Shown here in pieces: positions 17,564 through 19,018 of a stretch of DNA of 27,353 nt (position 1 is its first letter; the number at the start of each line of letters is the position of its first letter). The notes under the pieces are model-generated. The model was not told the origin of the DNA and did no database searches. It saw only the letters and a program-made list of their open reading frames with translations. The translations under genes were made by a program, and so were the position numbers. Location of the stretch: positions 1-27,353 of the IMG/VR virus record IMGVR_UViG_3300025132_000224. One strand, 5' to 3'. This DNA comes from a virus.

Positions 17564-17786
17564 TTTCCAACTCCTCTTTAATATCAATTAACAAATCAAT
17601 AGAATCATCAATTAATTTGTTACTTTTTTTCAACAATGTTTTTTTCTGTATCTTTCCTTTTTTTATTAAATCTATTACGGAATGGTTTACTCTTTCCAGA
17701 GAACTAATCGCATCATCAAAAGATACTTCGATAGATTCTTTTTTGCTCTTCGCTAATTGTAAGGGACGCACTATCTGGTCTTTCAT
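17505..17786 (-). CDS. Small helical protein, function unknown
   Basis: The product is 93 aa, Lys/Ser-rich and helical, with DDAISSLERVNHSVIDLIKKGKI and a long amphipathic segment SNKLIDDSIDLLIDIKEELE. Its C-terminus is hydrophilic (HNHNQGELFREE). GGAAAA lies upstream of the ATG. The first 71 bases overlap the gene before it and the last 59 the gene after it, which is a lot even for a phage. It could be a coiled-coil partner protein. No family was recognised. Confidence 0.55.
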   Translation of the reverse strand: MKDQIVRPLQLAKSKKESIEVSFDDAISSLERVNHSVIDLIKKGKIQKKTLLKKSNKLIDDSIDLLIDIKEELENGHNHNQGELFREETTNSD

Positions 17787-17985
17787 TTATTTTTTCCTTT
17801 TCTAAAAATTTATAAATACATTGTTTAATTGATACCAATAACGAATTAATTCTTTGTATCTCCTGATACTGTTGTATCTCTCTGACATTTGTTGTTGGTT
17901 TATTTTTAGGAATGCTTTCCTCAAAAATATCACAAATAACATTTAAGTGATTCTTCAGTATTTCTTCTCTTTTTTTGCTAATCAT
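17716..17985 (-). CDS. Small helical protein, function unknown
   Basis: The product is 89 aa and mostly helical: KREEILKNHLNVICDIFEESI, then QQYQEIQRINSLLVSIKQCI, then a charged end. GGAAAAAG lies upstream of the ATG at a loose distance. It overlaps the preceding gene by 8 bases and the following gene by 71 bases. No known family was recognised. Placement and codon pattern support coding, but either overlapping gene could start later. Confidence 0.5.
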   Translation of the reverse strand: MISKKREEILKNHLNVICDIFEESIPKNKPTTNVREIQQYQEIQRINSLLVSIKQCIYKFLEKEKINERPDSASLTISEEQKRIYRSIF

Positions 17986-18280
17986 AATAAGTTCTTTTTC
18001 CGTTAAATCCTAATCGATGCACAGTCGTACACTCTATACAGACCGTTGATATTTCTTTGGGAACAATAACGCCTTCAACTCTGTGTCTGGCCCGTAGCCC
18101 TGTTATTGCTCCATTCGTTTTTTTCATTACAAGGTTATCCTCATAAAATCCTCGGCCCCAACTTGCAGGGTCATTCGGATTCCTGGGGGTTGCTATCTCC
18201 GTTTTGCTTCTCACCCTCTCCAAATTCTGGAGACGTTTCTTCCTGAACGCTAAACGCTTTTTCCTCATATCCATATCCAT
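17978..18280 (-). CDS. Small basic protein with CxxC, function unknown
   Basis: The product is 100 aa from the ATG at 18280, which has GGAG seven bases upstream. The first 20 residues are very basic (MRKKRLAFRKKRLQNLERV). The middle has NPNDPASWGRGFYEDN, and C81/C84 form a CxxC near the end. About 110 bases overlap the 3' part of the DUF6378-like gene in another frame. A GTG at 18214 with GGAGAGG just upstream is an alternative start. The strongest coding signal lies in the unshared C-terminal two-thirds. It may bind nucleic acid; the function is unknown. Confidence 0.55.
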   Translation of the reverse strand: MDMDMRKKRLAFRKKRLQNLERVRSKTEIATPRNPNDPASWGRGFYEDNLVMKKTNGAITGLRARHRVEGVIVPKEISTVCIECTTVHRLGFNGKRTYYD

Positions 18281-18755
18281 CTTCTTTCTCCGCACATTCC
18301 GCAGACAACGCCATATAGCCAATTGCATCAGCGTAAGAATCCTCATGTTTTTTATTGGATAAAATTCTGGAAATTTTCAGCCAAGCCATCATCAGGGCGA
18401 CTGTCGAGGGAGGGATTTTTTCTACTCCGAGAATGGCGCTCCATCCCTTCGCAATATGCCCATGGGCTACAAGAGGATCTCCATATGTTGTCTCTCTTTC
18501 TCCGTTTATTAAGCTTTTAGCCTGATCTATTATTGAGTTTCTGTCAAGTTTTTCTCTTTTTTCTCCAATTTCTTCAATAGAAACAACGTCTTGCACCGAT
18601 TTAACCCCTTTTCTAATGCATTCCGCATTCATAATTATAAAAAAATCAAGAAAATTACCTGACGAAAACGGAGAAGAAGTTTTAAACGTAAATATCCTCT
18701 CCTCTTCTGTTCCTTCCTCGTTTGTAATATGATATGTAACCATGTATGACATCAT
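18171..18755 (-). CDS. DUF6378-like phage protein
   Basis: The product is 194 aa from the ATG at 18755, with AGGGGAA upstream. Residues about 80-160 carry the pattern GERETTYGDPLVAHGHIAKG, then AWLKISRILSN and SYADAIGYMAL, which I recognise as the DUF6378 domain common in phages. The arrangement of conserved Glu, Asp and His in helices resembles MazG-like folds, but no nucleotide hydrolase activity is established. The C-terminus is a Glu/Gly-rich tail. The first gene of the minus-strand cluster, it faces the ncRNA promoter. The 3' end overlaps the next gene by about 110 bases. Confidence 0.75.
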   Translation of the reverse strand: MMSYMVTYHITNEEGTEEERIFTFKTSSPFSSGNFLDFFIIMNAECIRKGVKSVQDVVSIEEIGEKREKLDRNSIIDQAKSLINGERETTYGDPLVAHGHIAKGWSAILGVEKIPPSTVALMMAWLKISRILSNKKHEDSYADAIGYMALSAECAEKEDGYGYEEKAFSVQEETSPEFGEGEKQNGDSNPQESE

Positions 18756-18780
18756 GTTTAAAATTCCCCTGTAAAGTATA

Positions 18781-18817
18781 ATTATATCTTGTAACATATG
18801 TATTTATATATTACAAT
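18781..18817. promoter_or_regulatory. Divergent promoter region with inverted repeat
   Basis: On the + strand, TTGTAA (18789-18794) and TACAAT (18812-18817) are 17 bases apart, a good sigma70 arrangement for the ncRNA. On the minus strand, a perfect TATAAT (18781-18786 complement) serves the DUF6378-like cluster with a weak -35. TTGTAACATA (18789-18798) and TATATTACAA (18807-18816) form a 9-of-10 inverted repeat, so a single regulator could cover both promoters. Confidence 0.6.
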
Positions 18818-18823
18818 ATAGGA

Positions 18824-19002
18824 GATTAAACAGAATTGAACCGAACAACCGAATGTGAAAGTGGAACAACAGCCTGTCGTGAGGCTATAATTCAAGGGGT
18901 TCACATTTGGTTCTCTCCTCGCCCCTTGGATCACGACATGTACTCATAGTACGTCCTTTACCTTGCCCCTGACTTTTTTATTGAAAGTCAGGGGTCTTTT
19001 TT
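18824..19002 (+). ncRNA. Candidate structured non-coding RNA with pseudoknots
   Basis: A transcript of about 180 nt is bounded by a sigma70-type promoter and a strong terminator, with no convincing ORF. P1 is a 13-bp helix, 18847-18859 with 18900-18912, having one G-U. Inside its loop, P2 is AGCCT/AGGCT (18871-18875, 18882-18886) with hexaloop GTCGTG. TTCAAGGGG (18891-18899) pairs with CCCCTTGGA (18922-18930), and the P2 loop GTCGTG pairs with CACGAC (18932-18937), giving two pseudoknots. GTAC (18940-18943) and GTAC (18949-18952) form a further hairpin. G-U pairs fit transcription from the + strand. I cannot match it to a named family. It lies just upstream of the small terminase gene. Confidence 0.75.
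18966..19002 (+). terminator. Strong rho-independent terminator
   Basis: CCCCTGACTTT (18966-18976) pairs perfectly with AAAGTCAGGGG (18984-18994) over 11 bp with a 7-base loop, then a T-rich run to 19002. It ends the ncRNA unit. The small terminase gene starts 17 bases further on. Confidence 0.9.
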
Positions 19003-19018
19003 ATAAGATATATCCGAT

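What the first reader, a model, noticed from the sequence alone, without database searches (positions are those of the whole stretch)
18824..19002. Double-pseudoknotted candidate ncRNA with its own promoter and terminator
Between a TTGTAA/TACAAT promoter (17-base spacer) and an 11-bp terminator lie about 140 nt with strong pairing: a 13-bp helix, a nested hairpin, and two pairings from the helix loop to a downstream 16-nt segment (9 bp and 6-7 bp). S2 abuts P1 with no linker, as in a coaxial H-type pseudoknot. G-U pairs on the + strand, and no convincing ORF, suggest an RNA. I cannot match it to a known family.
Basis: partly seen in the sequence, partly recalled or inferred. Interest (0 to 1): 0.87.

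Follow-up and report, generated by a model that had tools for sequence, protein, structure and literature searches.

The report
Clade-specific pseudoknotted small RNA in phages
A small group of aquatic podovirus-like phages carries, just upstream of a DNA-packaging gene, a short RNA gene whose elaborate double-pseudoknot fold is kept by matching mutations in related phages; it fits no catalogued RNA family and its job is not known.

Summary
Between a promoter-like site and an intrinsic terminator, upstream of terS, lies an RNA of about 180 nt. A 13-bp helix (P1) encloses a 5-bp hairpin (P2). The P2 loop pairs downstream (PK2, 5-6 bp), and so does the segment abutting P1 (PK1, 9 bp). No shuffled sequence reached its topology score. 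It occurs in 7 other IMG/VR contigs of the same clade (4 sequence types with the window). Between the window and L003, 36 of 38 pairs survive 19 substitutions, with six compensated pairs in P1, PK1 and PK2 (simulated null about 5e-6). There is no Rfam match and no hit in INPHARED or PLSDB. A 37-aa frame in the window is broken in L001/L002 while the helices stay. Three sister contigs with equally similar TerS lack the RNA body but keep its tail and terminator, so it is an accessory element. A promoter-like site within the terminator, no Shine-Dalgarno site before terS, and a gene inserted between RNA and terS in one contig favour a separate small-RNA gene over an obligatory terS leader. I infer a clade-specific, probably trans-acting phage sRNA. 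Its target is unknown, and no phage antisense target beat shuffles. A terS-controlling leader or a two-state switch is not excluded. No expression data exist.

The parts
18789..18817 (+). promoter-like site TTGTAA-N17-TACAAT of the RNA gene
   Evidence: 9/12 match, about 2 expected by chance in the stretch; the -35/-10 positions are recognisable in L001 and L003-L007
18824..19002 (+). predicted small RNA, about 180 nt
   Evidence: homologues in 7 IMG/VR contigs
18847..18859 (+). P1 5' strand AACCGAATGTGAA
   Evidence: 13 bp; 4 compensatory pairs and 3 one-sided kept pairs, window vs L003
18900..18912 (+). P1 3' strand TTCACATTTGGTT
18871..18886 (+). P2 hairpin AGCCT-GTCGTG-AGGCT
   Evidence: stem invariant in all homologues, so covariation says nothing about it
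18876..18881 (+). PK2 5' strand (P2 loop GTCGTG)
   Evidence: pairs with 18932-18937; one compensatory pair (T-A to C-G); outermost pair not conserved
18932..18937 (+). PK2 3' strand CACGAC
18891..18899 (+). PK1 5' strand TTCAAGGGG, abutting P1
   Evidence: pairs with 18922-18930; one compensatory pair (G-C to A-U) and one-sided kept changes
18922..18930 (+). PK1 3' strand CCCCTTGGA
18913..18921 (+). pyrimidine-rich loop CTCTCCTCG between P1 and PK1, unpaired, CTCTCCTC invariant in 8 contigs; candidate contact site
   Evidence: function inferred only
18939..18953 (+). P3 hairpin TGTAC-TCATA-GTACG
   Evidence: one-sided U-G to C-G change keeps it in L003
18954..18964 (+). unpaired tail TCCTTTACCTT before the terminator; related sequence kept even in L008-L010, which lack the RNA body
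18965..19003 (+). intrinsic terminator, 12-13 bp stem and T run
   Evidence: stem re-paired in L003, L006, L008, L009 variants
18981..19009 (+). promoter-like TTGAAA-N17-TAAGAT overlapping the terminator, placed to start a leaderless terS mRNA
   Evidence: elements present in L001-L007, and TTGAAA-N17-TAAAGT in L008-L010
19019..19630 (+). terminase small subunit gene (terS), neighbour; no Shine-Dalgarno upstream
   Evidence: (PF03592 Terminase_2)
18171..18797 (-). divergent neighbour, DUF6378 protein (true start probably inside this ORF)

Best explanation
It is a gene for a phage-encoded structured small RNA of about 180 nt, restricted to one clade related to DSL-LC04 and HTVC023P. Shown by sequence comparison: P1, PK1 and PK2 are held by compensatory changes, and the terminator helix is kept. 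Inferred: the RNA folds as two interleaved H-type pseudoknots, P1/PK1 and P2/PK2, with the PK1 and PK2 3' strands adjacent (18922-18937). It is transcribed from its own promoter and ends at the terminator, while terS starts from a second promoter overlapping that terminator. The rigid fold would present conserved unpaired segments (CUCUCCUC between P1 and PK1, and UCCUUUACCUU before the terminator) to a protein or RNA partner, so it acts in trans during infection. The partner is not identified.
For: Homologues in 7 further contigs with 4 distinct sequences in all. Window vs L003: 6 compensatory and 4 one-sided kept pairs, 2 lost, null P about 5e-6. Topology score exceeds all shuffles. Stable nested fold, z -3.27. 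Terminator maintained by compensation. L003 has a gene inserted between the RNA's terminator and terS. Promoter-like elements precede both the RNA and terS, and there is no Shine-Dalgarno before terS. The RNA body is missing in L008-L010 although terS is intact and equally similar, as expected for an accessory gene.
Against: No expression data. The promoters are weak consensus matches expected by chance. No phage antisense target beats shuffled segments. Only four sequence types, so the covariation rests on few evolutionary events. The RNA always sits just upstream of terS or, once, of an inserted gene, which also suits a leader.
Confidence: 0.52

Rival explanations
1. Cis-acting leader: the pseudoknotted RNA is the sensor of an attenuator. 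A protein (for example TerS itself) or a ligand binds it and sets read-through of the terminator into terS or the inserted gene, analogous in logic to the autoregulatory T4 gene 32 pseudoknot or a transcriptional riboswitch.
For: The RNA and terminator lie directly upstream of terS, the T run ending 16 nt before the ATG. Position conserved in all 8 contigs. The tail and terminator are kept next to terS even where the RNA body is missing.
Against: A promoter-like site conserved within the terminator could start terS independently. I found no conserved antiterminator: the window's AGGGGU (PK1) could pair with the terminator's GCCCCU, but this is not kept in L003, from reading the sequences. L008-L010 keep terS and the terminator without the sensor. 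No Shine-Dalgarno lies between terminator and ATG.
Confidence: 0.25
2. Two-state RNA switch rather than a static double pseudoknot: P1+P2 and PK1+PK2 are alternative folds.
For: PK1 and PK2 are nested with each other and form a hairpin of their own (-14.3 to -15.3 kcal/mol) against -22.6 to -25.0 for P1+P2. The single-sequence MFE of L003 contains the PK1 helix. Covariation supports helices, not simultaneity.
Against: The four helices are topologically compatible, and the loops look long enough by simple length arithmetic. P1+P2 forms first during transcription.
Confidence: 0.1
3. A small protein (37 aa, TTG 18836 to TAG 18949) is the product, and the RNA structure is secondary.
For: The frame is preceded by AGGAG, and L003 has a related open frame (TTAFREALVQGIILRSPRPLDHGFVQ).
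Against: Broken by a stop and a frameshift in L001/L002. L003 reaches it through compensating indels. Substitutions are not biased to third codon positions, by inspection of the codons. Compensatory changes track base pairs.
Confidence: 0.04
4. DNA-level site (packaging or regulatory site for TerS) whose inverted repeats look like RNA helices.
For: Lies next to terS; the tail and terminator DNA are conserved across both subclades.
Against: G-U/U-G intermediates and compensated pseudoknot pairs are expected of RNA, not duplex DNA. The body can be absent.
Confidence: 0.05

Closest known systems
Autoregulatory H-type pseudoknot of phage T4 gene 32 mRNA (own knowledge)
   Same: phage RNA, compact H-type pseudoknot with a very short loop 1; P2/PK2 here has a 0-1 nt first loop
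   Different: T4's is a single pseudoknot in a translational operator; this one has two interleaved pseudoknots, its own terminator and lies before a different gene
HDV-like ribozymes (own knowledge)
   Same: double-pseudoknot small RNA
   Different: strand order differs: in HDV the pseudoknot strand P2a precedes the P3 hairpin, here the hairpin precedes PK1a; no Rfam ribozyme match
phi29 packaging RNA (own knowledge)
   Same: small phage RNA; here next to a packaging gene
   Different: this phage has a TerS protein, unlike phi29, and there is no Rfam match
Rfam Flavobacterium-1 sRNA, found here in pelagiphage HTVC027P upstream of terS
   Same: structured RNA near terS in a related phage
   Different: no match in the window or its clade; fold and sequence are different

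Membership tests
Any Rfam 15 family (4227 models) | score at or above gathering threshold | tested here: not met
   best chance hit MIR5286 23.2 vs 93 bits, on the minus strand
Phage small regulatory RNA (broad kind) | intrinsic terminator at the 3' end | tested here: met
Phage small regulatory RNA (broad kind) | own promoter and discrete transcript | not testable with these tools
   only consensus matches; needs RNA-seq
Phage small regulatory RNA (broad kind) | conserved RNA structure, no conserved ORF | tested here: met
Phage small regulatory RNA (broad kind) | base-pairing target | tested here: inconclusive
   apart from self-matches, no site consistently better than shuffled segments; host unknown
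Transcriptional riboswitch or attenuator | conserved alternative pairing between aptamer and terminator | tested here: not met
   window AGGGGU/GCCCCU pairing not kept in L003/L006 (sequences), by inspection
HDV-like ribozyme | HDV strand order P1a P2a P3 P1b P4 P2b and Rfam CM match | tested here: not met
   strand order; no match
T4 gene 32-type autoregulatory pseudoknot | bound by the product of the downstream gene | not testable with these tools
   needs a TerS-RNA binding assay
phi29 pRNA | pRNA covariance model match; packaging motor without a TerS protein | tested here: not met
   no Rfam match; TerS is encoded next to it

The most novel reading that the evidence does not exclude
A new class of double-pseudoknot RNA with a specific activity of its own (a protein-titrating or ribosome-targeting decoy through the exposed CUCUCCUC and UCCUUUACCUU segments, or a sensor controlling DNA packaging) that phages of this group gain and lose as a cassette next to terS.
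Probability: 0.2. Interest if true: 0.8.

Novelty: new variant of a known kind. Interest (0 to 1): 0.5.

Why it matters
Structured RNAs of aquatic phages are little catalogued. This one has covariation support for both pseudoknots, a clean presence/absence contrast between close relatives, and sits next to the packaging gene. If confirmed as a transcript it would be a new RNA family and a tractable fold, and would raise the question of whether RNA helps to time or carry out packaging. A cultured relative, HTVC027P, carries a different structured RNA about 2 kb upstream of its terS.

Tried and rejected
Rfam at gathering threshold and relaxed threshold: nothing real. BLASTN against phages and plasmids: chance hits only. 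Exact-pattern scan of GTDB genome contigs: none; TerS alignment scan of the same: none. Relaxed patterns in viral contigs: extra hits were chance, no CM match. CM search of 70 further terS loci, of HTVC023P, HTVC027P, 023Pt_psg01 and DSL-LC04 genomes (first 50 kb of each), and of the 57%-PolA sister group: none. Small protein: rejected because the frame is broken in L001/L002. Antisense targets in the phages: best non-self sites do not beat shuffled segments consistently; the CTCTCCTC complement in the primase gene (window 12141 region, GAGGAGAG) is internal to the coding sequence. A 9-nt likeness of UUGGAUCAC to the 16S rRNA 3' end (own knowledge) was noticed and judged probably chance, since those bases are used by PK1 and PK2. 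The weak minus-strand CM hits (about 20 bits) are the reverse complement of the same helices. Literature: one paper holds both pelagiphage and noncoding RNA, neither in title or abstract and not read; no ncRNA mention in the HTVC023P-group genome paper PMC9599517 or the HTVC027P transcriptome paper PMC12753301.

Full report
What the window is. The window is a 27,353-base IMG/VR virus record. Its DNA polymerase A is 47-52% identical to those of phage DSL-LC04, phage 023Pt_psg01 and the pelagiphages HTVC023P and HTVC027P, and TerS finds the same four. The neighbourhood is a divergent DUF6378 gene on the left and terS (PF03592) on the right.

The observation. P1 (13 bp) encloses P2 (5 bp, 6-nt loop). 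The P2 loop pairs with 18932-18937 (PK2) and the segment immediately before P1's 3' strand pairs with 18922-18930 (PK1). One further hairpin (P3), an unpaired tail and a 12-13 bp terminator follow. The nested part alone folds better than 199 of 200 shuffles (z -3.27). A descriptor for the complete topology scored 81 in the window and 74-80.5 in its homologues. The best of 40 hits in 437 kb of first-order shuffled sequence was 63.5, and the best unrelated hit in related phages was 69, in a GC-rich genome.

Relatives. Searching with TerS gave ten IMG/VR contigs at 79-96% identity, then a gap to 64% and below; a second search with an alignment gave the same clade. Seven of the ten carry the RNA, and pattern scans of the whole viral collection found only those seven. 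With the window there are four sequence types: the window; L001/L002; L003/L004/L005; L006/L007. Three contigs (L008-L010) lack the body. They keep CGTCCCTAAACTT, the terminator, TTGAAA and a -10-like site before terS. TerS of L009/L010 is 82% identical to the window's, the same as L003/L006, so presence of the RNA does not follow TerS similarity: it is gained or lost as a cassette. More distant terS loci and the 57%-PolA sister group have no match.

Covariation. On the MAFFT alignment 98.4% of cells pair, and five pairs change on both sides: three in P1, one in PK1, one in PK2; sliding the partner by 1-3 columns drops pairing to 30-48%. With the two-base gap in P1 placed by hand, the window and L003 differ at 19 of 76 paired sites. 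Ten changed pairs are kept, six of them with both sides changed, and two are lost. Placing 19 random substitutions keeps 36 of 38 pairs with P about 5e-6. One P1 pair is also compensated between the window and L001, through a region with a two-base indel. P2 never varies, so it rests on position and on its loop's pairing. The outermost PK2 pair is not conserved; by H-type geometry that base could serve as the one-nucleotide loop (inference). Four sequence types are few, so the P value describes two lineages, not a deep family.

Coding or not. The window has a 37-aa frame from TTG 18836 with an upstream AGGAG, and L003 has a similar frame. In the identical L001 and L002 sequences it is stopped and shifted, while the helices are preserved. 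The RNA reading is better supported.

Does it belong to terS? The terminator ends 16 nt before the terS ATG and there is no Shine-Dalgarno in between. Within the terminator lies TTGAAA-N17-TAAGAT, conserved in position in all relatives, placed so that terS mRNA would be leaderless. In L003 a gene of 205 codons with an NPPF motif, methyltransferase-like by inspection (Pfam only weakly so), is inserted between this promoter and terS. These facts favour a self-contained RNA gene next to an independently started terS. They do not exclude a leader role, because consensus promoters are weak evidence: two were found where two are expected.

Function. The conserved unpaired segments CUCUCCUC and UCCUUUACCUU are candidate contact sites. 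A duplex search of six related phage genomes and the window found, apart from the RNA's own complement, no target consistently better than shuffled segments. The host is unknown, so host targets were not testable. My best reading is a trans-acting, protein- or RNA-binding phage sRNA (0.52). The main rival is a leader that regulates terS (0.25). Covariation cannot tell a simultaneous double pseudoknot from two alternating folds: PK1+PK2 can form a hairpin of its own.

Novelty. No Rfam family, no phage or plasmid record and no GTDB contig by exact pattern holds it. It is a new family of a known kind of thing, with an unusual topology. Interest is moderate: the fold is well supported for so few sequences, but distribution is narrow and function unknown.

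Noticed in passing
L097:903-1023 (HTVC027P, MN698241.1, about 17753-17873): Cultured pelagiphage HTVC027P carries an Rfam Flavobacterium-1 sRNA match (90.2 bits, cut-off 58.9) inside an unannotated gap of about 550 nt that folds strongly (z -5.1), about 2 kb upstream of terS. No similar DNA in other phage records.
   Followed up: partly
L096:2425-2970 (HTVC023P) and L095:1754-2396 (DSL-LC04): Unannotated 550-640 nt gaps upstream of terS that fold better than shuffles (z -3.8 and -3.3). The equivalent gap of 023Pt_psg01 does not (z -0.6). HTVC023P's gap has repeated CTAGGAAAA units.
   Followed up: partly
window:18785-18820: Imperfect 15-nt inverted repeat TATCTTGTAACATAT / ATATATTACAATATA over the RNA's promoter; possible operator between the divergent genes.
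   Followed up: no
L003:4378-4995: A gene with an NPPF motif, methyltransferase-like by inspection (weak Pfam PF05175 hit), inserted between the RNA terminator and terS in one contig only.
   Followed up: partly
L008:3988-4050, L009:4938-5000: Sister contigs lacking the RNA body keep the tail CGTCCCTAAACTT and a re-paired terminator directly before terS; an even shorter transcript may exist there.
   Followed up: partly
window:27204-27240: Strong terminator-like palindrome AGCCCCGAGG...CCTCGGGGCT followed by T8 near the right end (sequence).
   Followed up: no
window:22046-22463 (- strand): Two adjacent small ORFs both start MSSMTSD, suggesting a local duplication.
   Followed up: no
window:11994-13532: Replication protein with an archaeo-eukaryotic primase domain of the TOTE type (PF22548, E 7e-12), next to UvrD helicase and PolA.
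   Followed up: no
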